Of a DNA stretch of 64,000 nt, positions 19,705 to 50,900 are shown piece by piece; positions within the stretch are counted from its first letter, which is position 1; each line of letters starts with the position of its first letter. The DNA is from Apteryx mantelli (Eukaryota > Chordata > Aves > Apterygiformes > Apterygidae), in assembly GCF_036417845.1 (NCBI RefSeq), contig NC_089981.1:80517268-80581267 (forward strand). Direction: 5' to 3'. Below the pieces are notes generated by a model. The model had not been told where the DNA came from. It saw only the letters and a program-made list of their open reading frames with translations, and made no database searches. A program made the position numbers and the translations under genes.

Positions 19705-19714
19705 CCCCCCCCCC
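19705..19714 (+). repeat. Poly-C run of 10
   Basis: A homopolymer of ten C on the + strand, the first of three C runs within 1.6 kb. Confidence 0.85.
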
Positions 19715-20778: not shown

Positions 20779-20795
20779 CCCCCCCCCCCCCCCCC
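20779..20795 (+). repeat. Poly-C run of 17
   Basis: A pure C homopolymer on the + strand, so G on the strand that AHNAK2 transcripts would carry if they read through. Length is prone to sequencing error. Confidence 0.85.
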
Positions 20796-21282: not shown

Positions 21283-21301
21283 CCCCCCCCCCCCCCCCCC
21301 C
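21283..21301 (+). repeat. Poly-C run of 19
   Basis: A pure C homopolymer on the + strand, 488 bases after the 17-base run and in the same orientation. Confidence 0.85.
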
Positions 21302-22277: not shown

Positions 22278-22337
22278 GTCCTTTATTACACTCATTACAT
22301 TTCCCTGGTCCTTTATTATACTCATTACATTTTCCTG
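22278..22337 (+). repeat. 30-bp tandem duplication
   Basis: Two adjacent 30-base copies (22278-22307 and 22308-22337), each beginning GTCCTTTATTA and ending CCTG, differing at two positions. No coding potential. Confidence 0.85.
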
Positions 22338-23227: not shown

Positions 23228-23980
23228 TTTATTTACCCACATTTTTCTCATTTTTATTTGTCACCATGTTTTATTCTGGTATTTTGAAACTTTGAATCAA
23301 TTATATGTTTTTTGGTCTCGAATTTATTTATTTATTTTTTTAAATCTTTTAAGGCAAAGTATGAACCACCACAATAATCAAAAAAAGAAAAGAGGGGAAG
23401 GGGTAAAGTGTTATTCTATCTACACTAGTATTTTGTTTTTATTTTTCATTTTAAAATATGGAATATACATATACTCTAGCTGAAATAAAGAAAATATTTT
23501 AATAAAAAAGCAAAATAGGTCAGGCAGGTTTCAATATAAAATCTAAATGGGTAAGTATAGTTCTCATAGTATTAGTTTATACTCCTTTCTGCAAATAATC
23601 TATAATCTAAACATAATCAGTGTATTTTTGAGAAGCCTATTTAATAAGTCTTTTTCCTGTCTTTGAGCCTTTCAGTGGTTTACTTTCACAGTTCATGTAT
23701 CTTTTCAGACTTTGCTAAAACTATGAACTCCCCTGTATCTGTAGAAGTTGTTTGTTTCTTTTGGGGTAGATTTGAAGAAACAAATGATTTTATTAGTGTG
23801 CAGTACAGCACATTCATGTACTTGAAAATTTATATATAGTAAATTATGTTCAACAAACTGTCTTCATAAATGTCAGTTTTAAGTTTTGTTTCATTTTCAG
23901 TTACTGGAAAATTCAGAAAACAGATTTTTTTTCTCTGTATGTTCAGATTAGTTTCATTGGGGGTTGGGAAAAGACAATTC
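23228..23980 (-). other. AHNAK2: AHNAK2 3' UTR (approximate)
   Basis: AT-rich sequence after the AHNAK2 stop. On the - strand, AATAAA hexamers lie at 23331-23336, 23327-23332, 23323-23328 and 23228-23233 (TTTATT on +). Any could be the poly-A signal, giving a UTR of about 650-750 bases. The exact end cannot be set from sequence alone. Confidence 0.45.
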
Positions 23981-26900: not shown

Positions 26901-29900
26901 CCTTCCAATTTCACCTTTCTTCCATCCACAACTGATGATCCTTCACTTCCTGTTTCAGGGCTCTTCAGTTCAGTTGAGGCTTCTCCTTTGGGAAACTTAA
27001 TCCCTGTTTTTTGACTGGTATCTTCATCAGCAGAACTTGATTTTAGGACAACCTCTTGAAGACTGCCCTCTGAGGCAGGCAGAGCAGCATCAGCCTTTGC
27101 TAAGCTGACACCCATGTCAGTTTGGGAGGCTCCAATTTCTGTTCTGGAAAACTCCAAAGCAGGGATCTTAACCTCAGCCATTTTTATACTTATTTGTGCC
27201 CCCTCTTCTGTGCTTTTGGAATGACATCTTTCTATATCAAGTATCTGTATTGAATCATCACCATCTTCTTCTATTTTAGGAATAGTAGCATCAGCTTCAA
27301 CTTTTGGCAATTTCACCTGAGATTTGGGAATCTTGATTTTGGAGAGTGAAATTTTAGGCATGCCAAATTGCAGCTTTTTAATTGGACTTTTTTGTTCACC
27401 TTTTCCTGCAGAAATTTCCAGATCAAGGGCTGTGCTAGGACCTTGATCATCAGTTGCAGTTCCTGTCACTTCTGTGTCTATTCTGCCTGACACTACAGTA
27501 AGTTTATCATCTTCCAGATGTGCTCCAGAATCTGGTTTAACACATGCTTCCTTTTTTGGTGACCTACTAAAGGATGGAAGTTTGAATTTGGGCATTTTGA
27601 AATGTCCTTCTTTCTCTTCTCCATCTATATCTCCATGCTTTATTTCCCCTTTAACTTTTGGTGCTGTATCTGAATCCTGAATATCACTGTCTGTCTTTGG
27701 GATAGAAATGTCACCTGATGGGAGGCGGACATCAATCTTTGATGCCCTATTGTCAGCTTCAGGCATTTGGGCTTTAGGGATGGAATTTTCTATTTCTGCA
27801 GCAGATTCCACCTCCAAATTTGGTGCTTCAACACCGATGTCAGCAATTTCTATCATCGCTTTTAACTGGGGAACACTGATCTCTGATTTGGATTGTATGA
27901 CCTCCTTTTCTGGCACTTTTCCTTTCAAATGTGTAATTCCAGACTTTGGCATTTGGAATTTAGACATTTTAGTTTTTCCTTCAGGACCTTCATGTTTTAT
28001 TTCTACAGTACCCATAGCAATTTCACTTGATGTTCTTTCAACCGCTGTCTCAGGACTCTTCAACTCAAGGGAGCCTTCAGTTGTTGTCATCTTAATATCT
28101 GAGCTGGAGAGGCTGGCATCAGCAGCAGCTGATTTCAATGTCAGGTCAACCTGTTGAAGACTGACTTCACATGCAGGAAGTATGACCTTACCTGTAGACA
28201 TGCTAACATCCATGTCTACTTTGGGAGCTTTGACTTCTGATTTGGAAAATTCCAGGGTAGAGATTCTAACTTTTGGCATCTTTATACCCATTCCTGCCCC
28301 ATCTCCACTGCTTCCTTTCTCAGACCTCTGCACTGAAACACCTCCTTCTTTGGGACCACAAACATCAGTTTCTAGTTTGGGCTGAGAGACATGGACTTTC
28401 TGACCCTTCACTTTAGGGAGTGAGATCTTTGGCATGATAAACTGGGACTTTTTCATTTTGCCCTTTTCACCATCTTTTTCTGTTGATGTATCCAATTCCA
28501 CACTAGGATATTGATTCTCAGAGATAGTTAGGGTTAATTCAGATTCTGTATCTCCAGACAAAGCAGGTGGGGTGGGTTCCTCCAGATGTCCCTCAACTTC
28601 AGAGGGAACAACTGCTTCTTTCTTTGGGGACCAACTGAATGAAGGCAGTTTGAATTTTGACATTTTAAATTTGCTTTCTTTCTCCTCAATATCCTTCTCT
28701 ACCGAAATTACTTCCTGTTCTGCCTTGCATTCTAAATTTGAATGCCCAATTTCCATTTCTACCTTTGGCATGGTAACTTCCATTGATGGAAGACTGACAT
28801 CCAACTTTGCTGTATCCAGAACAACTTCAGGTGAAGGCTTTTGCATTTTTACACCTAATTCAGCTTCAGGAACTTGAGTTAGACTTTCACTACCAATATC
28901 AGCTATATCAGATGTTATCTTCTCCTTGGAAATTTCAGGTTGAACTTTAGAATGAATGTCAGTTTCTGATGGTTTTCCCTTAGACCAAGAAATTCCAAAT
29001 CTTGGTTTTCGGAATCTGGGTATTTTAACTGTATATTCTGTGTCACCCACAGATATTTCAGCAACTGGTGTTTTACCTCCTGACTTCAGAATACTTTGCT
29101 CCAAAGAACCCTCCTCAGTTAAGATTTCAAAATCTGTGGCAGAAAGATTCATATCAGCAAGAGATGATATTTTGGATTCAGATTCTGGTACATTCATTTC
29201 ATATTTAGTCAGAGTTACATCCCCTGTTGGTAATGCAGAATCCTGTTCAATTTTAGAAGAACCAATGTCAACTTTAGAGAAACCCAAACTAGGAATTCTA
29301 AATTTAGTATATTTAGAGGCAGTTTCTCCCTTATCATCAGGGGGAGGTTTTGGTCCAACACTGCTGGAAAGAATATCAGGGGTCTCCTTGGCTAATACAT
29401 AAGATTCCGCCTGAGCAAAATCAATATTGGACGTGCTCTGCACCTGTGCTTTAGAACTTTTGGAGAGAGAAAATTTTGGCATTTTAAAAAGAGAACTTTT
29501 AGCTTTACCCATCTCACCATCTTTTCCAGAGGAGGAAACTATGACATCACCACTGACAGGAGCCTGGATCTCGGCCGCGGGCAGGGTCAGCTCGGCTTCG
29601 GCGGTTCCCGAGGGCACCGTCACCTGGGGCTCCTTGAGGCTCACGTCCACGTCGGCGGCGACGGCGCCCTTGGCCTCTCTGCTGCTGGACCAGCCAAAGG
29701 AAGGCATGCCGAACTTGGGCATTTTGAACTTGCTGTCCTTCGCCTTCGAGGCCTCCTTCTCTGGGGCTTTTGCTTCCCCTTCGAGGGCGAGGCCCGCCTC
29801 GGGCGCCTGCAGGTCGACGCTGGCCTTTGGCAGGGTGATGTCGACGGAGGGCAGGGTGATGTCCACCTTGGGAGCCTTGGTGTCCGCTTTGGGCATTTTG

Positions 29901-32900
29901 AGGGAGGGCATTTCCACCTTCCAGCCAGCCCCTTCGGTTTTGGCACCGGGGACGTCGGCTTTGAGGCCCAGCGCGGGGCCTTCCCCTGTGGCGGTCACGG
30001 TGGCGGAGGGGAGGTCGACCTCTGCGGTGGGCAGGCTGACCTCTGCTCCGGGCCCTTGGGCCTTGGGGGGCGACACTCCAAATTTGGGCTTGTCGAACTT
30101 GGGCATCTTAATCTTCCCTTTCAGGCCGGCGGCTTCCACCTCGGCTCCCTCCAGCGAGCCTTCGGCGGAGGGCCCTTTCAGGTCCACCTCGGGCCCCTGG
30201 AGGCTGAGGGAGCCTTCGAGCGAGGGCAGCTGGACGTCGGGGGCCGAGAGGCTGACGTCGCCCGCGCCGGCCTTGAGCTCTGCCTCCGGGAGGCTGACGT
30301 CGACTTTGGGCAGGCTGACGTCCGCGTCGAGTTTGGGAGCCTTGACGGTTGGCTTGGAGAAGACCACGCTGGGCACCTTGACTTTTGGCATGTGCAGTTT
30401 CATGCCGCCGCCCTCGACCTTCCCGGGAGCGGCGTCCAGGCCGCCTTCGGCGTCGGGGCCCTGCAGGGCGAGCTCGCCCTCCGGGATTTCGGCCTGGGCT
30501 TTGGGCAGCGAGACCTCGGCCTTCGGCAGGCTGACCTGCACGTGGGGAGCCTTGGCTTTGGGCAGTTTGACGCTGGGCATCTTGACGTCGGGCATTTTGA
30601 ATCTGCCTTTCTCGGCGTCTCCGGCGCCGGCGGCGGCCTCGATGGTCAGCTCGACGCCGGGAGCCTGGATCTCGGCCGCGGGCAGGGTCAGCTCGGCTTC
30701 GGCGGTTCCCGAGGGCACCGTCACCTGGGGCTCCTTGAGGCTCACGTCCACGTCGGCGGCGACGGCGCCCTTGGCCTCTCTGCTGCTGGACCAGCCAAAG
30801 GAAGGCATGCCGAACTTGGGCATTTTGAACTTGCTGTCCTTCGCCTTCGAGGCCTCCTTCTCTGGGGCTTTTGCTTCCCCTTCGAGGGCGAGGCCCGCCT
30901 CGGGCGCCTGCAGGTCGACGCTGGCCTTTGGCAGGGTGATGTCGACGGAGGGCAGGGTGATGTCCACCTTGGGAGCCTTGGTGTCCGCTTTGGGCATTTT
31001 GAGGGAGGGCATTTCCACCTTCCAGCCAGCCCCTTCGGTTTTGGCACCGGGGACGTCGGCTTTGAGGCCCAGCGCGGGGCCTTCCCCTGTGGCGGTCACG
31101 GTGGCGGAGGGGAGGTCGACCTCTGCGGTGGGCAGGCTGACCTCTGCTCCGGGCCCTTGGGCCTTGGGGGGCGACACTCCAAATTTGGGCTTGTCGAACT
31201 TGGGCATCTTAATCTTCCCTTTCAGGCCGGCGGCTTCCACCTCGGCTCCCTCCAGCGAGCCTTCGGCGGAGGGCCCTTTCAGGTCCACCTCGGGCCCCTG
31301 GAGGCTGAGGGAGCCTTCGAGCGAGGGCAGCTGGACGTCGGGGGCCGAGAGGCTGACGTCGCCCGCGCCGGCCTTGAGCTCTGCCTCCGGGAGGCTGACG
31401 TCGACTTTGGGCAGGCTGACGTCCGCGTCGAGTTTGGGAGCCTTGACGGTTGGCTTGGAGAAGACCACGCTGGGCACCTTGACTTTTGGCATGTGCAGTT
31501 TCATGCTGCCGCCCTCGACCTTCCCGGGAGCGGCGTCCAGGCCGCCTTCGGCGTCGGGGCCCTGCAGGGCGAGCTCGCCCTCCGGGATTTCGGCCTGGGC
31601 TTTGGGCAGCGAGACCTCGGCCTTCGGCAGGCTGACCTGCACGTGGGGAGCCTTGGCTTTGGCCAGTTTGACGCTGGGCATCTTGACGTCGGGCATTTTG
31701 AATCTGCCTTTCTCGGCGTCTCCGGCGCCGGCGGCGGCCTCGATGGTCAGCTCGACGCCGGGAGCCTGGATCTCGGCCGCGGGCAGGGTCAGCTCGGCTT
31801 CGGCGGTTCCCGAGGGCACCGTCACCTGGGGCTCCTTGAGGCTCACGTCCACGTCGGCGGCGACGGCGCCCTTGGCCTCTCTGCTGCTGGACCAGCCAAA
31901 GGAAGGCATGCCGAACTTGGGCATTTTGAACTTGCTGTCCTTCGCCTTCGAGGCCTCCTTCTCTGGGGCTTTTGCTTCCCCTTCGAGGGCGAGGCCCGCC
32001 TCGGGCGCCTGCAGGTCGACGCTGGCCTTTGGCAGGGTGATGTCGACGGAGGGCAGGGTGATGTCCACCTTGGGAGCCTTGGTGTCCGCTTTGGGCATTT
32101 TGAGGGAGGGCATTTCCACCTTCCAGCCAGCCCCTTCGGTTTTGGCACCGGGGACGTCGGCTTTGAGGCCCAGCGCGGGGCCTTCCCCTGTGGCGGTCAC
32201 GGTGGCGGAGGGGAGGTCGACCTCTGCGGTGGGCAGGCTGACCTCTGCTCCGGGCCCTTGGGCCTTGGGGGGCGACACTCCAAATTTGGGCTTGTCGAAC
32301 TTGGGCATCTTAATCTTCCCTTTCAGGCCGGCGGCTTCCACCTCGGCTCCCTCCAGCGAGCCTTCGGCGGAGGGCCCTTTCAGGTCCACCTCGGGCCCCT
32401 GGAGGCTGAGGGAGCCTTCGAGCGAGGGCAGCTGGACATCGGGGGCCGAGAGGCTGACGTCGCCCGCGCCGGCCTTGAGCTCTGCCTCCGGGAGGCTGAC
32501 GTCGACTTTGGGCAGGCTGACGTCCGCGTCGAGTTTGGGAGCCTTGACGGTTGGCTTGGAGAAGACCACGCTGGGCACCTTGACTTTTGGCATGTGCAGT
32601 TTCATGCCGCCGCCCTCGACCTTCCCGGGAGCGGCGTCCAGGCCGCCTTCGGCGTCGGGGCCCTGCAGGGCGAGCTCGCCCTCCGGGATTTCGGCCTGGG
32701 CTTTGGGCAGCGAGACCTCGGCCTTCGGCAGGCTGACCTGCACGTGGGGAGCCTTGGCTTTGGGCAGTTTGACGCTGGGCATCTTGACGTCGGGCATTTT
32801 GAATCTGCCTTTCTCGGCGTCTCCGGCGCCGGCGGCGGCCTCGATGGTCAGCTCGACGCCGGGAGCCTGGATCTCGGCCGCGGGCAGGGTCAGCTCGGCT

Positions 32901-35900
32901 TCGGCGGTTCCCGAGGGCACCGTCACCTGGGGCTCCTTGAGGCTCACGTCCACGTCGGCGGCGACGGCGCCCTTGGCCTCTCTGCTGCTGGACCAGCCAA
33001 AGGAAGGCATGCCGAACTTGGGCATTTTGAACTTGCTGTCCTTCGCCTTCGAGGCCTCCTTCTCTGGGGCTTTTGCTTCCCCTTCGAGGGCGAGGCCCGC
33101 CTCGGGCGCCTGCAGGTCGACGCTGGCCTTTGGCAGGGTGATGTCGACGGAGGGCAGGGTGATGTCCACCTTGGGAGCCTTGGTGTCCGCTTTGGGCATT
33201 TTGAGGGAGGGCATTTCCACCTTCCAGCCAGCCCCTTCGGTTTTGGCACCGGGGACGTCGGCTTTGAGGCCCAGCGCGGGGCCTTCCCCTGTGGCGGTCA
33301 CGGTGGCGGAGGGGAGGTCGACCTCTGCGGTGGGCAGGCTGACCTCTGCTCCGGGCCCTTGGGCCTTGGGGGGCGACACTCCAAATTTGGGCTTGTCGAA
33401 CTTGGGCATCTTAATCTTCCCTTTCAGGCCGGCGGCTTCCACCTCGGCTCCCTCCAGCGAGCCTTCGGCGGAGGGCCCTTTCAGGTCCACCTCGGGCCCC
33501 TGGAGGCTGAGGGAGCCTTCGAGCGAGGGCAGCTGGACGTCGGGGGCCGAGAGGCTGACGTCGCCCGCGCCGGCCTTGAGCTCTGCCTCCGGGAGGCTGA
33601 CGTCGACTTTGGGCAGGCTGACGTCCGCGTCGAGTTTGGGAGCCTTGACGGTTGGCTTGGAGAAGACCACGCTGGGCACCTTGACTTTTGGCATGTGCAG
33701 TTTCATGCCGCCGCCCTCGACCTTCCCGGGAGCGGCGTCCAGGCCGCCTTCGGCGTCGGGGCCCTGCAGGGCGAGCTCGCCCTCCGGGATTTCGGCCTGG
33801 GCTTTGGGCAGCGAGACCTCGGCCTTCGGCAGGCTGACCTGCACGTGGGGAGCCTTGGCTTTGGCCAGTTTGACGCTGGGCATCTTGACGTCGGGCATTT
33901 TGAATCTGCCTTTCTCGGCGTCTCCGGCGCCGGCGGCGGCCTCGATGGTCAGCTCGACGCCGGGAGCCTGGATCTCGGCCGCGGGCAGGGTCAGCTCGGC
34001 TTCGGCGGTTCCCGAGGGCACCGTCACCTGGGGCTCCTTGAGGCTCACGTCCACGTCGGCGGCGACGGCGCCCTTGGCCTCTCTGCTGCTGGACCAGCCA
34101 AAGGAAGGCATGCCGAACTTGGGCATTTTGAACTTGCTGTCCTTCGCCTTCGAGGCCTCCTTCTCTGGGGCTTTTGCTTCCCCTTCGAGGGCGAGGCCCG
34201 CCTCGGGCGCCTGCAGGTCGACGCTGGCCTTTGGCAGGGTGATGTCGACGGAGGGCAGGGTGATGTCCACCTTGGGAGCCTTGGTGTCCGCTTTGGGCAT
34301 TTTGAGGGAGGGCATTTCCACCTTCCAGCCAGCCCCTTCGGTTTTGGCACCGGGGACGTCGGCTTTGAGGCCCAGCGCGGGGCCTTCCCCTGTGGCGGTC
34401 ACGGTGGCGGGGGGGAGGTCGACCTCTGCGGTGGGCAGGCTGACCTCTGCTCCGGGCCCTTGGGCCTTGGGGGGCGACACTCCAAATTTGGGCTTGTCGA
34501 ACTTGGGCATCTTAATCTTCCCTTTCAGGCCGGCGGCTTCCACCTCGGCTCCCTCCAGCGAGCCTTCGGCGGAGGGCCCTTTCAGGTCCACCTCGGGCCC
34601 CTGGAGGCTGAGGGAGCCTTCGAGCGAGGGCAGCTGGACGTCGGGGGCCGAGAGGCTGACGTCGCCCGCGCCGGCCTTGAGCTCTGCCTCCGGGAGGCTG
34701 ACGTCGACTTTGGGCAGGCTGACGTCCGCGTCGAGTTTGGGAGCCTTGACGGTTGGCTTGGAGAAGACCACGCTGGGCACCTTGACTTTTGGCATGTGCA
34801 GTTTCATGCCGCCGCCCTCGACCTTCCCGGGAGCGGCGTCCAGGCCGCCTTCGGCGTCGGGGCCCTGCAGGGCGAGCTCGCCCTCCGGGATTTCGGCCTG
34901 GGCTTTGGGCAGCGAGACCTCGGCCTTCGGCAGGCTGACCTGCACGTGGGGAGCCTTGGCTTTGGGCAGTTTGACGCTGGGCATCTTGACGTCGGGCATT
35001 TTGAATCTGCCTTTCTCGGCGTCTCCGGCGCCGGCGGCGGCCTCGATGGTCAGCTCGACGCCGGGAGCCTGGATCTCGGCCGCGGGCAGGGTCAGCTCGG
35101 CTTCGGCGGTTCCCGAGGGCACCGTCACCTGGGGCTCCTTGAGGCTCACGTCCACGTCGGCGGCGACGGCGCCCTTGGCCTCTCTGCTGCTGGACCAGCC
35201 AAAGGAAGGCATGCCGAACTTGGGCATTTTGAACTTGCTGTCCTTCGCCTTCGAGGCCTCCTTCTCTGGGGCTTTTGCTTCCCCTTCGAGGGCGAGGCCC
35301 GCCTCGGGCGCCTGCAGGTCGACGCTGGCCTTTGGCAGGGTGATGTCGACGGAGGGCAGGGTGATGTCCACCTTGGGAGCCTTGGTGTCCGCTTTGGGCA
35401 TTTTGAGGGAGGGCATTTCCACCTTCCAGCCAGCCCCTTCGGTTTTGGCACCGGGGACGTCGGCTTTGAGGCCCAGCGCGGGGCCTTCCCCTGTGGCGGT
35501 CACGGTGGCGGAGGGGAGGTCGACCTCTGCGGTGGGCAGGCTGACCTCTGCTCCGGGCCCTTGGGCCTTGGGGGGCGACACTCCAAATTTGGGCTTGTCG
35601 AACTTGGGCATCTTAATCTTCCCTTTCAGGCCGGCGGCTTCCACCTCGGCTCCCTCCAGCGAGCCTTCGGCGGAGGGCCCTTTCAGGTCCACCTCGGGCC
35701 CCTGGAGGCTGAGGGAGCCTTCGAGCGAGGGCAGCTGGACGTCGGGGGCCGAGAGGCTGACGTCGCCCGCGCCGGCCTTGAGCTCTGCCTCCGGGAGGCT
35801 GACGTCGACTTTGGGCAGGCTGACGTCCGCGTCGAGTTTGGGAGCCTTGACGGTTGGCTTGGAGAAGACCACGCTGGGCACCTTGACTTTTGGCATGTGC

Positions 35901-38900
35901 AGTTTCATGCCGCCGCCCTCGACCTTCCCGGGAGCGGCGTCCAGGCCGCCTTCGGCGTCGGGGCCCTGCAGGGCGAGCTCGCCCTCCGGGATTTCGGCCT
36001 GGGCTTTGGGCAGCGAGACCTCGGCCTTCGGCAGGCTGACCTGCACGTGGGGAGCCTTGGCTTTGGGCAGTTTGACGCTGGGCATCTTGACGTCGGGCAT
36101 TTTGAATCTGCCTTTCTCGGCGTCTCCGGCGCCGGCGGCGGCCTCGATGGTCAGCTCGACGCCGGGAGCCTGGATCTCGGCCGCGGGCAGGGTCAGCTCG
36201 GCTTCGGCGGTTCCCGAGGGCACCGTCACCTGGGGCTCCTTGAGGCTCACGTCCACGTCGGCGGCGCCGGCGCCCTTGGCCTCTCTGCTGCTGGACCAGC
36301 CAAAGGAAGGCATGCCGAACTTGGGCATTTTGAACTTGCTGTCCTTCGCCTTCGAGGCCTCCTTCTCTGGGGCTTTTGCTTCCCCTTCGAGGGCGAGGCC
36401 CGCCTCGGGCGCCTGCAGGTCGACGCTGGCCTTTGGCAGGGTGATGTCGACGGAGGGCAGGGTGATGTCCACCTTGGGAGCCTTGGTGTCCGCTTTGGGC
36501 ATTTTGAGGGAGGGCATTTCCACCTTCCAGCCAGCCCCTTCGGTTTTGGCACCGGGGACGTCGGCTTTGAGGCCCAGCGCGGGGCCTTCCCCTGTGGCGG
36601 TCACGGTGGCGGGGGGGAGGTCGACCTCTGCGGTGGGCAGGCTGACCTCTGCTCCGGGCCCTTGGGCCTTGGGGGGCGACACTCCAAATTTGGGCTTGTC
36701 GAACTTGGGCATCTTAATCTTCCCTTTCAGGCCGGCGGCTTCCACCTCGGCTCCCTCCAGCGAGCCTTCGGCGGAGGGCCCTTTCAGGTCCACCTCGGGC
36801 CCCTGGAGGCTGAGGGAGCCTTCGAGCGAGGGCAGCTGGACGTCGGGGGCCGAGAGGCTGACGTCGCCCGCGCCGGCCTTGAGCTCTGCCTCCGGGAGGC
36901 TGACGTCGACTTTGGGCAGGCTGACGTCCGCGTCGAGTTTGGGAGCCTTGACGGTTGGCTTGGAGAAGACCACGCTGGGCACCTTGACTTTTGGCATGTG
37001 CAGTTTCATGCCGCCGCCCTCGACCTTCCCGGGAGCGGCGTCCAGGCCGCCTTCGGCGTCGGGGCCCTGCAGGGCGAGCTCGCCCTCCGGGATTTCGGCC
37101 TGGGCTTTGGGCAGCGAGACCTCGGCCTTCGGCAGGCTGACCTGCACGTGGGGAGCCTTGGCTTTGGCCAGTTTGACGCTGGGCATCTTGACGTCGGGCA
37201 TTTTGAATCTGCCTTTCTCGGCGTCTCCGGCGCCGGCGGCGGCCTCGATGGTCAGCTCGACGCCGGGAGCCTGGATCTCGGCCGCGGGCAGGGTCAGCTC
37301 GGCTTCGGCGGTTCCCGAGGGCACCGTCACCTGGGGCTCCTTGAGGCTCACGTCCACGTCGGCGGCGCCGGCGCCCTTGGCCTCTCTGCTGCTGGACCAG
37401 CCAAAGGAAGGCATGCCGAACTTGGGCATTTTGAACTTGCTGTCCTTCGCCTTCGAGGCCTCCTTCTCTGGGGCTTTTGCTTCCCCTTCGAGGGCGAGGC
37501 CCGCCTCGGGCGCCTGCAGGTCGACGCTGGCCTTTGGCAGGGTGATGTCGACGGAGGGCAGGGTGATGTCCACCTTGGGAGCCTTGGTGTCCGCTTTGGG
37601 CATTTTGAGGGAGGGCATTTCCACCTTCCAGCCAGCCCCTTCGGTTTTGGCACCGGGGACGTCGGCTTTGAGGCCCAGCGCGGGGCCTTCCCCTGTGGCG
37701 GTCACGGTGGCGGAGGGGAGGTCGACCTCTGCGGTGGGCAGGCTGACCTCTGCTCCGGGCCCTTGGGCCTTGGGGGGCGACACTCCAAATTTGGGCTTGT
37801 CGAACTTGGGCATCTTAATCTTCCCTTTCAGGCCGGCGGCTTCCACCTCGGCTCCCTCCAGCGAGCCTTCGGCGGAGGGCCCTTTCAGGTCCACCTCGGG
37901 CCCCTGGAGGCTGAGGGAGCCTTCGAGCGAGGGCAGCTGGACGTCGGGGGCCGAGAGGCTGACGTCGCCCGCGCCGGCCTTGAGCTCTGCCTCCGGGAGG
38001 CTGACGTCGACTTTGGGCAGGCTGACGTCCGCGTCGAGTTTGGGAGCCTTGACGGTTGGCTTGGAGAAGACCACGCTGGGCACCTTGACTTTTGGCATGT
38101 GCAGTTTCATGCCGCCGCCCTCGACCTTCCCGGGAGCGGCGTCCAGGCCGCCTTCGGCGTCAGGGCCCTGCAGGGCGAGCTCGCCCTCCGGGATTTCGGC
38201 CTGGGCTTTGGGCAGCGAGACCTCGGCCTTCGGCAGGCTGACCTGCACGTGGGGAGCCTTGGCTTTGGGCAGTTTGACGCTGGGCATCTTGACGTCGGGC
38301 ATTTTGAATCTGCCTTTCTCGGCGTCTCCGGCGCCGGCGGCGGCCTCGATGGTCAGCTCGACGCCGGGAGCCTGGATCTCGGCCGCGGGCAGGGTCAGCT
38401 CGGCTTCGGCGGTTCCCGAGGGCACCGTCACCTGGGGCTCCTTGAGGCTCACGTCCACGTCGGCGGCGCCGGCGCCCTTGGCCTCTCTGCTGCTGGACCA
38501 GCCAAAGGAAGGCATGCCGAACTTGGGCATTTTGAACTTGCTGTCCTTCGCCTTCGAGGCCTCCTTCTCTGGGGCTTTTGCTTCCCCTTCGAGGGCGAGG
38601 CCCGCCTCGGGCGCCTGCAGGTCGACGCTGGCCTTTGGCAGGGTGATGTCGACGGAGGGCAGGGTGATGTCCACCTTGGGAGCCTTGGTGTCCGCTTTGG
38701 GCATTTTGAGGGAGGGCATTTCCACCTTCCAGCCAGCCCCTTCGGTTTTGGCACCGGGGACGTCGGCTTTGAGGCCCAGCGCGGGGCCTTCCCCTGTGGC
38801 GGTCACGGTGGCGGAGGGGAGGTCGACCTCTGCGGTGGGCAGGCTGACCTCTGCTCCGGGCCCTTGGGCCTTGGGGGGCGACACTCCAAATTTGGGCTTG

Positions 38901-41900
38901 TCGAACTTGGGCATCTTAATCTTCCCTTTCAGGCCGGCGGCTTCCACCTCGGCTCCCTCCAGCGAGCCTTCGGCGGAGGGCCCTTTCAGGTCCACCTCGG
39001 GCCCCTGGAGGCTGAGGGAGCCTTCGAGCGAGGGCAGCTGGACGTCGGGGGCCGAGAGGCTGACGTCGCCCGCGCCGGCCTTGAGCTCTGCCTCCGGGAG
39101 GCTGACGTCGACTTTGGGCAGGCTGACGTCCGCGTCGAGTTTGGGAGCCTTGACGGTTGGCTTGGAGAAGACCACGCTGGGCACCTTGACTTTTGGCATG
39201 TGCAGTTTCATGCCGCCGCCCTCGACCTTCCCGGGAGCGGCGTCCAGGCCGCCTTCGGCGTCGGGGCCCTGCAGGGCGAGCTCGCCCTCCGGGATTTCGG
39301 CCTGGGCTTTGGGCAGCGAGACCTCGGCCTTCGGCAGGCTGACCTGCACGTGGGGAGCCTTGGCTTTGGGCAGTTTGACGCTGGGCATCTTGACGTCGGG
39401 CATTTTGAATCTGCCTTTCTCGGCGTCTCCGGCGCCGGCGGCGGCCTCGATGGTCAGCTCGACGCCGGGAGCCTGGATCTCGGCCGCGGGCAGGGTCAGC
39501 TCGGCTTCGGCGGTTCCCGAGGGCACCGTCACCTGGGGCTCCTTGAGGCTCACGTCCACGTCGGCGGCGACGGCGCCCTTGGCCTCTCTGCTGCTGGACC
39601 AGCCAAAGGAAGGCATGCCGAACTTGGGCATTTTGAACTTGCTGTCCTTCGCCTTCGAGGCCTCCTTCTCTGGGGCTTTTGCTTCCCCTTCGAGGGCGAG
39701 GCCCGCCTCGGGCGCCTGCAGGTCGACGCTGGCCTTTGGCAGGGTGATGTCGACGGAGGGCAGGGTGATGTCCACCTTGGGAGCCTTGGTGTCCGCTTTG
39801 GGCATTTTGAGGGAGGGCATTTCCACCTTCCAGCCAGCCCCTTCGGTTTTGGCACCGGGGACGTCGGCTTTGAGGCCCAGCGCGGGGCCTTCCCCTGTGG
39901 CGGTCACGGTGGCGGGGGGGAGGTCGACCTCTGCGGTGGGCAGGCTGACCTCTGCTCCGGGCCCTTGGGCCTTGGGGGGCGACACTCCAAATTTGGGCTT
40001 GTCGAACTTGGGCATCTTAATCTTCCCTTTCAGGCCGGCGGCTTCCACCTCGGCTCCCTCCAGCGAGCCTTCGGCGGAGGGCCCTTTCAGGTCCACCTCG
40101 GGCCCCTGGAGGCTGAGGGAGCCTTCGAGCGAGGGCAGCTGGACGTCGGGGGCCGAGAGGCTGACGTCGCCCGCGCCGGCCTTGAGCTCTGCCTCCGGGA
40201 GGCTGACGTCGACTTTGGGCAGGCTGACGTCCGCGTCGAGTTTGGGAGCCTTGACGGTTGGCTTGGAGAAGACCACGCTGGGCACCTTGACTTTTGGCAT
40301 GTGCAGTTTCATGCCGCCGCCCTCGACCTTCCCGGGAGCGGCGTCCAGGCCGCCTTCGGCGTCGGGGCCCTGCAGGGCGAGCTCGCCCTCCGGGATTTCG
40401 GCCTGGGCTTTGGGCAGCGAGACCTCGGCCTTCGGCAGGCTGACCTGCACGTGGGGAGCCTTGGCTTTGGGCAGTTTGACGCTGGGCATCTTGACGTCGG
40501 GCATTTTGAATCTGCCTTTCTCGGCGTCTCCGGCGCCGGCGGCGGCCTCGATGGTCAGCTCGACGCCGGGAGCCTGGATCTCGGCCGCGGGCAGGGTCAG
40601 CTCGGCTTCGGCGGTTCCCGAGGGCACCGTCACCTGGGGCTCCTTGAGGCTCACGTCCACGTCGGCGGCGACGGCGCCCTTGGCCTCTCTGCTGCTGGAC
40701 CAGCCAAAGGAAGGCATGCCGAACTTGGGCATTTTGAACTTGCTGTCCTTCGCCTTCGAGGCCTCCTTCTCTGGGGCTTTTGCTTCCCCTTCGAGGGCGA
40801 GGCCCGCCTCGGGCGCCTGCAGGTCGACGCTGGCCTTTGGCAGGGTGATGTCGACGGAGGGCAGGGTGATGTCCACCTTGGGAGCCTTGGTGTCCGCTTT
40901 GGGCATTTTGAGGGAGGGCATTTCCACCTTCCAGCCAGCCCCTTCGGTTTTGGCACCGGGGACGTCGGCTTTGAGGCCCAGCGCGGGGCCTTCCCCTGTG
41001 GCGGTCACGGTGGCGGAGGGGAGGTCGACCTCTGCGGTGGGCAGGCTGACCTCTGCTCCGGGCCCTTGGGCCTTGGGGGGCGACACTCCAAATTTGGGCT
41101 TGTCGAACTTGGGCATCTTAATCTTCCCTTTCAGGCCGGCGGCTTCCACCTCGGCTCCCTCCAGCGAGCCTTCGGCGGAGGGCCCTTTCAGGTCCACCTC
41201 GGGCCCCTGGAGGCTGAGGGAGCCTTCAAGCGAGGGCAGCTGGACGTCGGGGGCCGAGAGGCTGACGTCGCCCGCGCCGGCCTTGAGCTCTGCCTCCGGG
41301 AGGCTGACGTCGACTTTGGGCAGGCTGACGTCCGCGTCGAGTTTGGGAGCCTTGACGGTTGGCTTGGAGAAGACCACGCTGGGCACCTTGACTTTTGGCA
41401 TGTGCAGTTTCATGCCGCCGCCCTCGACCTTCCCGGGAGCGGCGTCCAGGCCGCCTTCGGCGTCGGGGCCCTGCAGGGCGAGCTCGCCCTCCGGGATTTC
41501 GGCCTGGGCTTTGGGCAGCGAGACCTCGGCCTTCGGCAGGCTGACCTGCACGTGGGGAGCCTTGGCTTTGGGCAGTTTGACGCTGGGCATCTTGACGTCG
41601 GGCATTTTGAATCTGCCTTTCTCAGCGTCTCCGGCGCCGGCGGCGGCCTCGATGGTCAGCTCGACGCCGGGAGCCTGGATCTCGGCCGCGGGCAGGGTCA
41701 GCTCGGCTTCGGCGGTTCCCGAGGGCACCGTCACCTGGGGCTCCTTGAGGCTCACGTCCACGTCGGCGGCGACGGCGCCCTTGGCCTCTCTGCTGCTGGA
41801 CCAGCCAAAGGAAGGCATGCCGAACTTGGGCATTTTGAACTTGCTGTCCTTCGCCTTCGAGGCCTCCTTCTCTGGGGCTTTTGCTTCCCCTTCGAGGGCG

Positions 41901-44900
41901 AGGCCCGCCTCGGGCGCCTGCAGGTCGACGCTGGCCTTTGGCAGGGTGATGTCGACGGAGGGCAGGGTGATGTCCACCTTGGGAGCCTTGGTGTCCGCTT
42001 TGGGCATTTTGAGGGAGGGCATTTCCACCTTCCAGCCAGCCCCTTCGGTTTTGGCACCGGGGACGTCGGCTTTGAGGCCCAGCGCGGGGCCTTCCCCTGT
42101 GGCGGTCACGGTGGCGGAGGGGAGGTCGACCTCTGCGGTGGGCAGGCTGACCTCTGCTCCGGGCCCTTGGGCCTTGGGGGGCGACACTCCAAATTTGGGC
42201 TTGTCGAACTTGGGCATCTTAATCTTCCCTTTCAGGCCGGCGGCTTCCACCTCGGCTCCCTCCAGCGAGCCTTCGGCGGAGGGCCCTTTCAGGTCCACCT
42301 CGGGCCCCTGGAGGCTGAGGGAGCCTTCGAGCGAGGGCAGCTGGACGTCGGGGGCCGAGAGGCTGACGTCGCCCGCGCCGGCCTTGAGCTCTGCCTCCGG
42401 GAGGCTGACGTCGACTTTGGGCAGGCTGACGTCCGCGTCGAGTTTGGGAGCCTTGACGGTTGGCTTGGAGAAGACCACGCTGGGCACCTTGACTTTTGGC
42501 ATGTGCAGTTTCATGCCGCCGCCCTCGACCTTCCCGGGAGCGGCGTCCAGGCCGCCTTCGGCGTCGGGGCCCTGCAGGGCGAGCTCGCCCTCCGGGATTT
42601 CGGCCTGGGCTTTGGGCAGCGAGACCTCGGCCTTCGGCAGGCTGACCTGCACGTGGGGAGCCTTGGCTTTGGGCAGTTTGACGCTGGGCATCTTGACGTC
42701 GGGCATTTTGAATCTGCCTTTCTCGGCGTCTCCGGCGCCGGCGGCGGCCTCGATGGTCAGCTCGACGCCGGGAGCCTGGATCTCGGCCGCGGGCAGGGTC
42801 AGCTCGGCTTCGGCGGTTCCCGAGGGCACCGTCACCTGGGGCTCCTTGAGGCTCACGTCCACGTCGGCGGCGCCGGCGCCCTTGGCCTCTCTGCTGCTGG
42901 ACCAGCCAAAGGAAGGCATGCCGAACTTGGGCATTTTGAACTTGCTGTCCTTCGCCTTCGAGGCCTCCTTCTCTGGGGCTTTTGCTTCCCCTTCGAGGGC
43001 GAGGCCCGCCTCGGGCGCCTGCAGGTCGACGCTGGCCTTTGGCAGGGTGATGTCGACGGAGGGCAGGGTGATGTCCACCTTGGGAGCCTTGGTGTCCGCT
43101 TTGGGCATTTTGAGGGAGGGCATTTCCACCTTCCAGCCAGCCCCTTCGGTTTTGGCACCGGGGACGTCGGCTTTGAGGCCCAGCGCGGGGCCTTCCCCTG
43201 TGGCGGTCACGGTGGCGGAGGGGAGGTCGACCTCTGCGGTGGGCAGGCTGACCTCTGCTCCGGGCCCTTGGGCCTTGGGGGGCGACACTCCAAATTTGGG
43301 CTTGTCGAACTTGGGCATCTTAATCTTCCCTTTCAGGCCGGCGGCTTCCACCTCGGCTCCCTCCAGCGAGCCTTCGGCGGAGGGCCCTTTCAGGTCCACC
43401 TCGGGCCCCTGGAGGCTGAGGGAGCCTTCGAGCGAGGGCAGCTGGACGTCGGGGGCCGAGAGGCTGACGTCGCCCGCGCCGGCCTTGAGCTCTGCCTCCG
43501 GGAGGCTGACGTCGACTTTGGGCAGGCTGACGTCCGCGTCGAGTTTGGGAGCCTTGACGGTTGGCTTGGAGAAGACCACGCTGGGCACCTTGACTTTTGG
43601 CATGTGCAGTTTCATGCCGCCGCCCTCGACCTTCCCGGGAGCGGCGTCCAGGCCGCCTTCGGCGTCGGGGCCCTGCAGGGCGAGCTCGCCCTCCGGGATT
43701 TCGGCCTGGGCTTTGGGCAGCGAGACCTCGGCCTTCGGCAGGCTGACCTGCACGTGGGGAGCCTTGGCTTTGGGCAGTTTGACGCTGGGCATCTTGACGT
43801 CGGGCATTTTGAATCTGCCTTTCTCGGCGTCTCCGGCGCCGGCGGCGGCCTCGATGGTCAGCTCGACGCCGGGAGCCTGGATCTCGGCCGCGGGCAGGGT
43901 CAGCTCGGCTTCGGCGGTTCCCGAGGGCACCGTCACCTGGGGCTCCTTGAGGCTCACGTCCACGTCAGCGGCGACGGCGCCCTTGGCCTCTCTGCTGCTG
44001 GACCAGCCAAAGGAAGGCATGCCGAACTTGGGCATTTTGAACTTGCTGTCCTTCGCCTTCGAGGCCTCCTTCTCTGGGGCTTTTGCTTCCCCTTCGAGGG
44101 CGAGGCCCGCCTCGGGCGCCTGCAGGTCGACGCTGGCCTTTGGCAGGGTGATGTCGACGGAGGGCAGGGTGATGTCCACCTTGGGAGCCTTGGTGTCCGC
44201 TTTGGGCATTTTGAGGGAGGGCATTTCCACCTTCCAGCCAGCCCCTTCGGTTTTGGCACCGGGGACGTCGGCTTTGAGGCCCAGCGCGGGGCCTTCCCCT
44301 GTGGCGGTCACGGTGGCGGAGGGGAGGTCGACCTCTGCGGTGGGCAGGCTGACCTCTGCTCCGGGCCCTTGGGCCTTGGGGGGCGACACTCCAAATTTGG
44401 GCTTGTCGAACTTGGGCATCTTAATCTTCCCTTTCAGGCCGGCGGCTTCCACCTCGGCTCCCTCCAGCGAGCCTTCGGCGGAGGGCCCTTTCAGGTCCAC
44501 CTCGGGCCCCTGGAGGCTGAGGGAGCCTTCAAGCGAGGGCAGCTGGACGTCGGGGGCCGAGAGGCTGACGTCGCCCGCGCCGGCCTTGAGCTCTGCCTCC
44601 GGGAGGCTGACGTCGACTTTGGGCAGGCTGACGTCCGCGTCGAGTTTGGGAGCCTTGACGGTTGGCTTGGAGAAGACCACGCTGGGCACCTTGACTTTTG
44701 GCATGTGCAGTTTCATGCCGCCGCCCTCGACCTTCCCGGGAGCGGCGTCCAGGCCGCCTTCGGCGTCGGGGCCCTGCAGGGCGAGCTCGCCCTCCGGGAT
44801 TTCGGCCTGGGCTTTGGGCAGCGAGACCTCGGCCTTCGGCAGGCTGACCTGCACGTGGGGAGCCTTGGCTTTGGGCAGTTTGACGCTGGGCATCTTGACG

Positions 44901-47900
44901 TCGGGCATTTTGAATCTGCCTTTCTCGGCGTCTCCGGCGCCGGCGGCGGCCTCGATGGTCAGCTCGACGCCGGGAGCCTGGATCTCGGCCGCGGGCAGGG
45001 TCAGCTCGGCTTCGGCGGTTCCCGAGGGCACCGTCACCTGGGGCTCCTTGAGGCTCACGTCCACGTCGGCGGCGACGGCGCCCTTGGCCTCTCTGCTGCT
45101 GGACCAGCCAAAGGAAGGCATGCCGAACTTGGGCATTTTGAACTTGCTGTCCTTCGCCTTCGAGGCCTCCTTCTCTGGGGCTTTTGCTTCCCCTTCGAGG
45201 GCGAGGCCCGCCTCGGGCGCCTGCAGGTCGACGCTGGCCTTTGGCAGGGTGATGTCGACGGAGGGCAGGGTGATGTCCACCTTGGGAGCCTTGGTGTCCG
45301 CTTTGGGCATTTTGAGGGAGGGCATTTCCACCTTCCAGCCAGCCCCTTCGGTTTTGGCACCGGGGACGTCGGCTTTGAGGCCCAGCGCGGGGCCTTCCCC
45401 TGTGGCGGTCACGGTGGCGGAGGGGAGGTCGACCTCTGCGGTGGGCAGGCTGACCTCTGCTCCGGGCCCTTGGGCCTTGGGGGGCGACACTCCAAATTTG
45501 GGCTTGTCGAACTTGGGCATCTTAATCTTCCCTTTCAGGCCGGCGGCTTCCACCTCGGCTCCCTCCAGCGAGCCTTCGGCGGAGGGCCCTTTCAGGTCCA
45601 CCTCGGGCCCCTGGAGGCTGAGGGAGCCTTCGAGCGAGGGCAGCTGGACGTCGGGGGCCGAGAGGCTGACGTCGCCCGCGCCGGCCTTGAGCTCTGCCTC
45701 CGGGAGGCTGACGTCGACTTTGGGCAGGCTGACGTCCGCGTCGAGTTTGGGAGCCTTGACGGTTGGCTTGGAGAAGACCACGCTGGGCACCTTGACTTTT
45801 GGCATGTGCAGTTTCATGCCGCCGCCCTCGACCTTCCCGGGAGCGGCGTCCAGGCCGCCTTCGGCGTCGGGGCCCTGCAGGGCGAGCTCGCCCTCCGGGA
45901 TTTCGGCCTGGGCTTTGGGCAGCGAGACCTCGGCCTTCGGCAGGCTGACCTGCACGTGGGGAGCCTTGGCTTTGGCCAGTTTGACGCTGGGCATCTTGAC
46001 GTCGGGCATTTTGAATCTGCCTTTCTCGGCGTCTCCGGCGCCGGCGGCGGCCTCGATGGTCAGCTCGACGCCGGGAGCCTGGATCTCGGCCGCGGGCAGG
46101 GTCAGCTCGGCTTCGGCGGTTCCCGAGGGCACCGTCACCTGGGGCTCCTTGAGGCTCACGTCCACGTCGGCGGCGCCGGCGCCCTTGGCCTCTCTGCTGC
46201 TGGACCAGCCAAAGGAAGGCATGCCGAACTTGGGCATTTTGAACTTGCTGTCCTTCGCCTTCGAGGCCTCCTTCTCTGGGGCTTTTGCTTCCCCTTCGAG
46301 GGCGAGGCCCGCCTCGGGCGCCTGCAGGTCGACGCTGGCCTTTGGCAGGGTGATGTCGACGGAGGGCAGGGTGATGTCCACCTTGGGAGCCTTGGTGTCC
46401 GCTTTGGGCATTTTGAGGGAGGGCATTTCCACCTTCCAGCCAGCCCCTTCGGTTTTGGCACCGGGGACGTCGGCTTTGAGGCCCAGCGCGGGGCCTTCCC
46501 CTGTGGCGGTCACGGTGGCGGAGGGGAGGTCGACCTCTGCGGTGGGCAGGCTGACCTCTGCTCCGGGCCCTTGGGCCTTGGGGGGCGACACTCCAAATTT
46601 GGGCTTGTCGAACTTGGGCATCTTAATCTTCCCTTTCAGGCCGGCGGCTTCCACCTCGGCTCCCTCCAGCGAGCCTTCGGCGGAGGGCCCTTTCAGGTCC
46701 ACCTCGGGCCCCTGGAGGCTGAGGGAGCCTTCGAGCGAGGGCAGCTGGACGTCGGGGGCCGAGAGGCTGACGTCGCCCGCGCCGGCCTTGAGCTCTGCCT
46801 CCGGGAGGCTGACGTCGACTTTGGGCAGGCTGACGTCCGCGTCGAGTTTGGGAGCCTTGACGGTTGGCTTGGAGAAGACCACGCTGGGCACCTTGACTTT
46901 TGGCATGTGCAGTTTCATGCCGCCGCCCTCGACCTTCCCGGGAGCGGCGTCCAGGCCGCCTTCGGCGTCGGGGCCCTGCAGGGCGAGCTCGCCCTCCGGG
47001 ATTTCGGCCTGGGCTTTGGGCAGCGAGACCTCGGCCTTCGGCAGGCTGACCTGCACGTGGGGAGCCTTGGCTTTGGGCAGTTTGACGCTGGGCATCTTGA
47101 CGTCGGGCATTTTGAATCTGCCTTTCTCGGCGTCTCCGGCGCCGGCGGCGGCCTCGATGGTCAGCTCGACGCCGGGAGCCTGGATCTCGGCCGCGGGCAG
47201 GGTCAGCTCGGCTTCGGCGGTTCCCGAGGGCACCGTCACCTGGGGCTCCTTGAGGCTCACGTCCACGTCGGCGGCGACGGCGCCCTTGGCCTCTCTGCTG
47301 CTGGACCAGCCAAAGGAAGGCATGCCGAACTTGGGCATTTTGAACTTGCTGTCCTTCGCCTTCGAGGCCTCCTTCTCTGGGGCTTTTGCTTCCCCTTCGA
47401 GGGCGAGGCCCGCCTCGGGCGCCTGCAGGTCGACGCTGGCCTTTGGCAGGGTGATGTCGACGGAGGGCAGGGTGATGTCCACCTTGGGAGCCTTGGTGTC
47501 CGCTTTGGGCATTTTGAGGGAGGGCATTTCCACCTTCCAGCCAGCCCCTTCGGTTTTGGCACCGGGGACGTCGGCTTTGAGGCCCAGCGCGGGGCCTTCC
47601 CCTGTGGCGGTCACGGTGGCGGGGGGGAGGTCGACCTCTGCGGTGGGCAGGCTGACCTCTGCTCCGGGCCCTTGGGCCTTGGGGGGCGACACTCCAAATT
47701 TGGGCTTGTCGAACTTGGGCATCTTAATCTTCCCTTTCAGGCCGGCGGCTTCCACCTCGGCTCCCTCCAGCGAGCCTTCGGCGGAGGGCCCTTTCAGGTC
47801 CACCTCGGGCCCCTGGAGGCTGAGGGAGCCTTCGAGCGAGGGCAGCTGGACGTCGGGGGCCGAGAGGCTGACGTCGCCCGCGCCGGCCTTGAGCTCTGCC

Positions 47901-50900
47901 TCCGGGAGGCTGACGTCGACTTTGGGCAGGCTGACGTCCGCGTCGAGTTTGGGAGCCTTGACGGTTGGCTTGGAGAAGACCACGCTGGGCACCTTGACTT
48001 TTGGCATGTGCAGTTTCATGCCGCCGCCCTCGACCTTCCCGGGAGCGGCGTCCAGGCCGCCTTCGGCGTCGGGGCCCTGCAGGGCGAGCTCGCCCTCCGG
48101 GATTTCGGCCTGGGCTTTGGGCAGCGAGACCTCGGCCTTCGGCAGGCTGACCTGCACGTGGGGAGCCTTGGCTTTGGGCAGTTTGACGCTGGGCATCTTG
48201 ACGTCGGGCATTTTGAATCTGCCTTTCTCGGCGTCTCCGGCGGCGGCGGCGGCCTCGATGGTCAGCTCGACGCCGGGAGCCTGGATCTCGGCCGCGGGCA
48301 GGGTCAGCTCGGCTTCGGCGGTTCCCGAGGGCACCGTCACCTGGGGCTCCTTGAGGCTCACGTCCACGTCGGCGGCGCCGGCGCCCTTGGCCTCTCTGCT
48401 GCTGGACCAGCCAAAGGAAGGCATGCCGAACTTGGGCATTTTGAACTTGCTGTCCTTCGCCTTCGAGGCCTCCTTCTCTGGGGCTTTTGCTTCCCCTTCG
48501 AGGGCGAGGCCCGCCTCGGGCGCCTGCAGGTCGACGCTGGCCTTTGGCAGGGTGATGTCGACGGAGGGCAGGGTGATGTCCACCTTGGGAGCCTTGGTGT
48601 CCGCTTTGGGCATTTTGAGGGAGGGCATTTCCACCTTCCAGCCAGCCCCTTCGGTTTTGGCACCGGGGACGTCGGCTTTGAGGCCCAGCGCGGGGCCTTC
48701 CCCTGTGGCGGTCACGGTGGCGGGGGGGAGGTCGACCTCTGCGGTGGGCAGGCTGACCTCTGCTCCGGGCCCTTGGGCCTTGGGGGGCGACACTCCAAAT
48801 TTGGGCTTGTCGAACTTGGGCATCTTAATCTTCCCTTTCAGGCCGGCGGCTTCCACCTCGGCTCCCTCCAGCGAGCCTTCGGCGGAGGGCCCTTTCAGGT
48901 CCACCTCGGGCCCCTGGAGGCTGAGGGAGCCTTCGAGCGAGGGCAGCTGGACGTCGGGGGCCGAGAGGCTGACGTCGCCCGCGCCGGCCTTGAGCTCTGC
49001 CTCCGGGAGGCTGACGTCGACTTTGGGCAGGCTGACGTCCGCGTCGAGTTTGGGAGCCTTGACGGTTGGCTTGGAGAAGACCACGCTGGGCACCTTGACT
49101 TTTGGCATGTGCAGTTTCATGCCGCCGCCCTCGACCTTCCCGGGAGCGGCGTCCAGGCCGCCTTCGGCGTCGGGGCCCTGCAGGGCGAGCTCGCCCTCCG
49201 GGATTTCGGCCTGGGCTTTGGGCAGCGAGACCTCGGCCTTCGGCAGGCTGACCTGCACGTGGGGAGCCTTGGCTTTGGGCAGTTTGACGCTGGGCATCTT
49301 GACGTCGGGCATTTTGAATCTGCCTTTCTCGGCGTCTCCGGCGCCGGCGGCGGCCTCGATGGTCAGCTCGACGCCGGGAGCCTGGATCTCGGCCGCGGGC
49401 AGGGTCAGCTCGGCTTCGGCGGTTCCCGAGGGCACCGTCACCTGGGGCTCCTTGAGGCTCACGTCCACGTCGGCGGCGACGGCGCCCTTGGCCTCTCTGC
49501 TGCTGGACCAGCCAAAGGAAGGCATGCCGAACTTGGGCATTTTGAACTTGCTGTCCTTCGCCTTCGAGGCCTCCTTCTCTGGGGCTTTTGCTTCCCCTTC
49601 GAGGGCGAGGCCCGCCTCGGGCGCCTGCAGGTCGACGCTGGCCTTTGGCAGGGTGATGTCGACGGAGGGCAGGGTGATGTCCACCTTGGGAGCCTTGGTG
49701 TCCGCTTTGGGCATTTTGAGGGAGGGCATTTCCACCTTCCAGCCAGCCCCTTCGGTTTTGGCACCGGGGACGTCGGCTTTGAGGCCCAGCGCGGGGCCTT
49801 CCCCTGTGGCGGTCACGGTGGCGGAGGGGAGGTCGACCTCTGCGGTGGGCAGGCTGACCTCTGCTCCGGGCCCTTGGGCCTTGGGGGGCGACACTCCAAA
49901 TTTGGGCTTGTCGAACTTGGGCATCTTAATCTTCCCTTTCAGGCCGGCGGCTTCCACCTCGGCTCCCTCCAGCGAGCCTTCGGCGGAGGGCCCTTTCAGG
50001 TCCACCTCGGGCCCCTGGAGGCTGAGGGAGCCTTCGAGCGAGGGCAGCTGGACGTCGGGGGCCGAGAGGCTGACGTCGCCCGCGCCGGCCTTGAGCTCTG
50101 CCTCCTTTTGTTTGATTTCTGTCCCAGGCAAGGCTATGTCTATTTTATATTTTGTAATATCTGTATCTTCTTTTTGTGCCTTTACATCGTGTTTAAAAAA
50201 ACCCATTTTAGGCATTTTGACCTTTTTCTTTTGAAGTTTTATTCCTGTCTCTTCATCTTTACCTAGTATTTTTTCAATGATATCGTCTCTTTCCTTGGAT
50301 GGTACAGAGATTTCACCGTCTTTCATTTCAGTATCTGGTCTGGGAGGCTTCTTTTCTGCTTCTGACTTTGCCCACTGATTCTCTGAGGATGAAGTTGCTA
50401 TTTTTTTAGTTTTCAAGCTTGGCATTTGGACTTCTGGTAGGTGTCTTATATTTTTTTCACTTATATTTTCTTCAATTATCCTTCTTTCAATTTCAGCACT
50501 TGGAGCCTGCATCTCTCCTATTGTTATGCTGATATCTGTTTTTTCATCTGCTGCTAGAGAATGCACTTTTGTTTCCCCATGGCTCACCTGATCCTCAGTT
50601 TCCCCTGTTTCGTCCTTTAGCGTTGCCCAAGTAAATGTAGGAAATTTGAACTTTGGCAGTCTGAATTTGCTTTCTTTTCCCTCTATATCTTTTTCTCCTG
50701 CCTTCATATCAATGTCCATCTTAGAGTCTTTATCAGTTGTAGGCACATCATCTTCTTCTGTCTGTGCCTTTTTTACAGTATCTATTGACTGGACTGTGCT
50801 CTCTTCTCTGGGTAGTTTTATGTCATCTTTAGGTATTTTGGCCATTTTGAATGATGGCATTTGTATTTTCCACGCAGATACTTCTGATTCTGCATCAGGC

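What the first reader, a model, noticed from the sequence alone, without database searches (positions are those of the whole stretch)
29559..50105. A 20.5-kb coding tandem array of 18.66 nearly identical 1101-bp units
Seen directly: exact 1101-bp periodicity with only a handful of variable sites in over 20 kb, all within one exon and one frame. Human AHNAK2 also has a repetitive centre, but with units of about 165 residues. A 367-residue unit with this identity implies very recent expansion or continuing homogenisation. Protein length would be directly tunable by unequal crossing over, adding or removing 367 residues at a time.
Basis: partly seen in the sequence, partly recalled or inferred. 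Interest (0 to 1): 0.85.

Follow-up and report, generated by a model that had tools for sequence, protein, structure and literature searches.

The report
Giant homogenised GC-rich AHNAK2 repeat exon
A vertebrate AHNAK2 gene carries about 19 almost identical 367-residue repeats in one giant exon, and those repeats are far richer in G and C than the worn-out relatives on either side, as expected if the copies keep overwriting one another with a bias toward G and C.

Summary
The array is real in this sequence: window 29559-50105, period 1101 bp, 18.66 units, 99.8% identity at that lag, 10 variable sites per unit. It codes on the minus strand, inside one open exon of 28,026 bp. The gene is AHNAK2: two upstream exons encode its PDZ domain and PLD4 lies nearby. 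Both flanks of the exon hold old, diverged units (29% and 34% identical residues) in or nearly in register with the array. The new point is composition. Fourfold-site GC is 0.90 in the array and 0.21-0.23 in the flanks; CpG observed/expected is 0.80 against 0.12-0.19. At 332 aligned same-residue fourfold sites, 218 are A/T in the flank and G/C in the core, 6 the reverse. Three variable sites show all four allele combinations, so units probably exchange sequence; six rare transitions all fall at CpG. Best reading: an AHNAK2 coding VNTR homogenised by unequal exchange and GC-biased conversion. AHNAK2 repeats and coding VNTRs are known; unit length, identity and GC contrast make this a new variant. 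Physical copy number, variation between individuals and relatives could not be tested.

The parts
29559..50105 (-). Homogenised array: 18 full units (30288-50105) and one partial unit of 729 bp (29559-30287), period 1101 bp = 367 codons
23981..52006 (-). Giant 3' coding exon of AHNAK2, 28,026 bp including the stop; acceptor-like TTCTTCTTTCAG just before it
   Evidence: acceptor by inspection, no transcript data
50106..52006 (-). N-terminal part of the exon, with about 1.5 old diverged units, 7 residues off the array's register, low GC (GC4 0.21)
23984..29558 (-). C-terminal part of the exon: about five old diverged units, within 1 residue of the array's register, low GC (GC4 0.23)
53742..53894 (-). 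First PDZ exon of AHNAK2 (approximate ends)
   Evidence: 4cn0 AHNAK2 E 7.7e-17, periaxin 4cmz E 2.7e-08
52850..52975 (-). Second PDZ exon of AHNAK2 (approximate ends)
   Evidence: 4cn0 AHNAK2 E 1e-13, periaxin 4cmz E 3.5e-10
8371..14503 (+). Nearby gene PLD4 (exons matched piecewise)

Best explanation
This is the AHNAK2 gene of a vertebrate. Its giant exon holds about 25 repeats of an old unit of about 367 residues; the 18.66 in the middle are kept nearly identical by unequal crossing over and gene conversion between units. Repair in these exchanges favours G and C, so the exchanging core has become GC- and CpG-rich while the end units, which no longer exchange, drifted to low GC and diverged. 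Shown: array, gene identity, homology and near-register of the flanks, GC and CpG contrast, unit types that look recombinant. Inferred: GC-biased conversion as the cause, continuing activity, and that individuals differ in copy number. For the protein, the expected effect is a long, low-complexity, probably disordered scaffold arm behind a PDZ dimer, whose length changes in steps of 367 residues.
For: Array and variants. PDZ exons match AHNAK2 better than periaxin; PLD4 nearby. Flanking parts align to the unit over 516 residues (N side, 29% identical, score 460 against a maximum of 87 in 40 shuffles) and 1,635 residues (C side, 34%, 1572 against 143). GC4 0.90 in core, 0.21 and 0.23 in flanks; CpG o/e 0.80, 0.19 and 0.12. 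Same-residue fourfold sites: 218 flank-A/T to core-G/C against 6 reverse, of 332; all degenerate third positions: 391 against 24, of 688. Replaced residues: core codon richer in GC at positions 1-2 in 711, poorer in 257, of 1,444. Four allele combinations at all three pairs among sites 280, 626 and 826. The six rare transitions (of 10 variable sites) are all at CpG; chance 0.0004 if spread over G/C sites. Site model: by formula a repair bias of about 0.10 among 19 copies moves equilibrium GC from 0.22 to 0.90; simulated without bias it settles at 0.21 from either start.
Against: No pedigree, population or ortholog data. Units are not more alike when closer together (r -0.05, one-sided permutation p 0.66), where local unequal crossing over predicts that neighbours resemble each other. 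No units of intermediate divergence lie between core and flanks, which fits a recent re-expansion better than slow steady exchange. Repeated mutation at the three sites could also give four combinations. The CpG argument rests on six sites picked as rare transitions: a seventh transition (site 280, 14 to 5) is not at CpG, and one rare variant (761) is a transversion. Polarity rests on the majority allele, and base-calling error at methylated CpG is not excluded. The site model assumes equilibrium and the same mutation spectrum in core and flanks.
Confidence: 0.68

Rival explanations
1. A single recent expansion: one old unit that was already GC-rich was amplified to about 19 copies, with no continuing exchange.
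For: Very low divergence, mean 2.14 differences per 1101 bp; abrupt borders with no intermediate units; no decline of similarity with distance.
Against: All four allele combinations at three site pairs need exchange or repeated mutation. It leaves unexplained why one unit of the same exon was at GC4 0.90 while its neighbours were at 0.21-0.23.
Confidence: 0.2
2. Selection or lack of germline methylation, not biased conversion, keeps the array GC- and CpG-rich, for example as a very long unmethylated CpG island.
For: CpG o/e 0.80 over 20.5 kb, 1,852 CpG.
Against: The six rare transitions are all CpG to TpG or CpA, as methylated CpG decay would give. At the 200-codon resolution the contrast stops at the border of the array, not at the border of the exon.
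Confidence: 0.1
3. The array, or its copy number, is an assembly artefact.
For: GRCm39 had wrong copy numbers for Ahnak2 (passages of PMC12903361). Five of 18 full units are the identical consensus type, and unit 18 and the partial unit agree over its 729 bp.
Against: 12 distinct sequences among 18 units in mixed order. No two neighbouring full units are identical, though 19% of shuffles do this too. The longest exact repeat is 2,266 bp, so accurate reads longer than that can order the units. An erroneous loop would be expected to copy units exactly (inference).
Confidence: 0.07

Closest known systems
Human AHNAK2 (5,795 residues; 24 repeats of 165 residues; large exon of about 17,559 bp; passages of PMC10682155)
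   Same: PDZ domain upstream, one giant exon, central repeats, C-terminal part
   Different: Unit 367 instead of 165 residues; 9,341 residues from the giant exon alone; units 99.8% identical as DNA. The human repeat sequence was not compared here.
Mouse Ahnak2 and other coding VNTRs (passages of PMC12903361)
   Same: Protein-coding array prone to copy-number error in assemblies; most coding VNTRs there are GC-richer than the reading-frame average
   Different: Repeat units there reach 990 nt; here 1101. In the passages seen, the GC excess is genome-wide, not a core set against old units of the same exon.
Interlocus gene conversion in human segmental duplications (passages of PMC10172114)
   Same: Duplicated DNA with raised GC, attributed there to GC-biased conversion
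   Different: There a genome-wide set of duplications with 7.6% fewer CpG transitions than unique DNA; here one exon, with its six rare transitions at CpG
Periaxin (PRX)
   Same: Related intertwined PDZ dimer and a tail region homologous to AHNAK2 (passages of PMC7072810)
   Different: Both PDZ exons match AHNAK2 more strongly

Membership tests
AHNAK2 | PDZ domain of the AHNAK2/periaxin kind, closer to AHNAK2 | tested here: met
   AHNAK2 4cn0 above periaxin 4cmz for both exons. Pfam gave no PDZ hit on 52064-62000 minus. No AHNAK (AHNAK1) chain appeared among the hits, so that paralogue was not compared directly.
AHNAK2 | One giant 3' exon with central tandem repeats and a diverged C-terminal part | tested here: met
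AHNAK2 | Genomic neighbour PLD4 (human order recalled) | tested here: met
   no Pfam match in 14991-23980 between them
AHNAK2 | Repeat unit of about 165 residues as in human | tested here: not met
   Unit is 367 residues. It holds two related parts offset by about 140 residues, 40% identical over 126. Unit length is not taken here as defining.
AHNAK2 | Sequence relation of the repeat itself to AHNAK2 repeats of other species | not testable with these tools
   no vertebrate genomes or proteomes held; viral and prokaryote collections gave none
Array under GC-biased gene conversion | GC excess confined to the exchanging copies, at silent and replacement sites | tested here: met
Array under GC-biased gene conversion | Exchange between copies | tested here: met
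   four allele combinations in all three pairs of sites 280, 626, 826; repeated mutation not excluded
Array under GC-biased gene conversion | Biased transmission seen in meioses | not testable with these tools
   needs trios or sperm long reads
Coding VNTR | Copy number differs between individuals | not testable with these tools
   one haplotype only

The most novel reading that the evidence does not exclude
The array is a self-sustaining GC pump in a protein-coding exon. Frequent exchange among about 19 units has driven silent GC from about 0.22 to 0.90, filled 20.5 kb with 1,852 CpG, and shifted the protein itself from 18-20% to 36% Gly+Ala+Arg+Pro against its own old units. Biased repair, not selection on function, would then have written much of a giant protein's sequence.
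Probability: 0.4. Interest if true: 0.65.

Novelty: new variant of a known kind. Interest (0 to 1): 0.5.

Why it matters
The exon carries its own control: old units of the same repeat, in the same reading frame, that left the exchange. Comparing them with the core measures what biased exchange does to codons and residues without needing another species. It would also give a coding locus where protein length can change by 367 residues in one event, and a test of whether biased conversion can shape a large protein.

Tried and rejected
Antisense open frames across the array were considered as possible genes and rejected: two antisense frames are open in 3,612 of 5,000 codon shuffles.

A fold for the unit was sought. 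AlphaFold gave mean pLDDT 42.8 for one unit with 7 rows and 28.1 for two units with 8 rows. That fits disorder but, with so few rows, proves nothing; no fold search was run on these models.

Pfam finds no repeat family in the two exon pieces given (49007-52063 and 23984-29701); the only hits, PF21930 at E 0.56 and 0.39, are far below its cut-off. Relatives of the unit were sought in viral and prokaryote contigs: none confirmed, of 2 and 74 pattern matches, as expected for a vertebrate gene. Rfam and tRNA scans were empty.

A first tract-based simulation had not reached equilibrium without bias (mean GC 0.54, started at 0.9) and had far more diversity than observed. It was replaced by the site model, whose simulated diversity (about 0.02) is also about ten times the observed 0.002; the bias of about 0.10 comes from the low-mutation formula (0.096 gives 0.90). 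In the simulation a bias of 0.10 gave 0.88-0.89.

Considered and not significant: no identical neighbours among full units (19% of shuffles); 5 of 6 rare CpG changes silent where 100 of 200 possible are silent. The species was not determined, and exons upstream of the PDZ exons were not located.

Literature: AHNAK with 'concerted evolution' gave 0 papers; AHNAK2 with 'gene conversion' 4, seen as listing only; AHNAK2 with repeat and birds 8, listing only. Other searches. Passages were seen of PMC12903361, PMC7072810, PMC12581843 (not used), PMC10682155, PMC10172114 and PMC3890296 (not used); no paper was read whole. GC-biased conversion in histone and Hsp70 gene families is recalled, not read. 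Only the open library was searched.

Full report
Observation. The window has a 1101-bp period from 29559 to 50105: identity 0.998 at lag 1101 and 0.24-0.33 at the lags 1098-1100 and 1102-1104. Cut into units it gives 18 full units and one of 729 bp, 12 distinct sequences among the 18, 10 variable sites, and a mean of 2.14 and a maximum of 6 differences between full units.

Gene. The minus-strand ORF 23981-52063 is open for 9,360 codons. An acceptor-like sequence (TTCTTCTTTCAG) puts the exon start at 52006, so the coding exon is 28,026 bp, 9,342 codons with the stop. Upstream, two exons at about 53742-53894 and 52850-52975 encode a PDZ domain: 4cn0 (AHNAK2) at E 7.7e-17 and 1e-13, periaxin 4cmz at 2.7e-08 and 3.5e-10. 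Pfam did not report the PDZ. On the plus strand between about 8.4 and 14.5 kb lies PLD4 (best E 2.1e-45; PLD3 weaker; Pfam PLD domains). PLD4 as the neighbour of human AHNAK2 is recalled. Exons upstream of the PDZ were not located, and the paralogue AHNAK was not compared directly.

Old units in the flanks. The parts of the exon outside the array are related to it. The N-side part aligns to the unit over 516 residues (29% identical) and the C-side part over 1,635 residues (34%), with scores 460 and 1572 against maxima of 87 and 143 in 40 shuffles each. From the alignment coordinates the C side meets the array within 1 residue of register and the N side 7 residues off it. Taken as single old units they are 24-37% identical to the core unit, the last two on the C side only 24-25%. 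So the exon is one old array of about 25 units whose middle 18.66 have been made uniform. No unit has intermediate divergence. Inside the unit, two parts offset by about 140 residues are 40% identical over 126 residues.

Composition. In the core GC at codon positions 1, 2, 3 is 0.70, 0.48, 0.84; in the N flank 0.47, 0.36, 0.27; in the C flank 0.51, 0.40, 0.28. Fourfold GC is 0.90, 0.21, 0.23; CpG o/e 0.80, 0.19, 0.12. On the alignment of flank to core, among 332 fourfold sites with the same residue, 218 are A/T in the flank and G/C in the core and 6 the reverse; among all 688 degenerate same-residue codons, 391 and 24. Replacements go the same way, 711 to 257 of 1,444. Gly+Ala+Arg+Pro is 36% in the core, 18% and 20% in the flanks. 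Homogenisation without bias does not change base composition. In a simple model of 19 copies with the mutation bias implied by the flanks, the formula gives GC 0.90 at a repair bias near 0.10; the simulation gave 0.88-0.89 at bias 0.10 and 0.21 without bias, from either start. The model assumes equilibrium and equal mutation in core and flanks.

Exchange and mutation. Sites 280, 626 and 826 show all four combinations in all three pairs among the 18 full units, so unit types look recombinant, unless the same mutations recurred. Of the 10 variable sites, six carry a rare transition (five seen in one unit, one in two); all six are C to T or G to A at CpG (chance 0.0004 if spread over G/C sites). 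The other four (280, 626, 761, 826) are not at CpG: 280 is a transition at intermediate frequency, 761 a rare transversion, 626 and 826 transversions at intermediate frequency. So CpG decay, probably from methylation, seems to act on the array, while its CpG content stays at 90 per kb. Against simple local exchange: similarity does not fall with distance (r -0.05, one-sided p 0.66).

Mechanism and effect. I take the array to be kept uniform by unequal crossing over and GC-biased conversion, with a recent re-expansion likely, given the sharp borders. The protein would be a PDZ-dimer scaffold with a very long repetitive arm; AlphaFold gives no confident fold for one or two units, in keeping with the disorder predicted for the related periaxin tail (passages of PMC7072810). 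Functional effects of length are not known.

Known ground. AHNAK2 repeats are known in human, 24 of 165 residues (passages of PMC10682155). Mouse Ahnak2 is listed among genes whose repeat number was misassembled, and coding VNTRs there are mostly GC-rich, with units up to 990 nt (passages of PMC12903361). GC-biased conversion between duplicates is known (passages of PMC10172114). In the listings and passages of the searches named I did not meet this contrast within one AHNAK2 exon. The verdict is a new variant of a known kind. The physical copy number, variation between individuals and the species remain open.

Noticed in passing
17751-19500: A CpG-island-like block of about 1.75 kb (GC 0.58-0.73, CpG o/e 0.54-0.98 in 250-bp steps) between PLD4 and the 3' end of AHNAK2, with overlapping open frames on both strands and no Pfam match. 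Promoter, insertion or unannotated gene is unresolved.
   Followed up: partly
29396-50266 plus strand: Two plus-strand frames of over 6,900 codons are open across the array; explained by composition and a period divisible by three.
   Followed up: yes
8371-14503 plus strand: PLD4 exons, found piecewise in two frames.
   Followed up: partly
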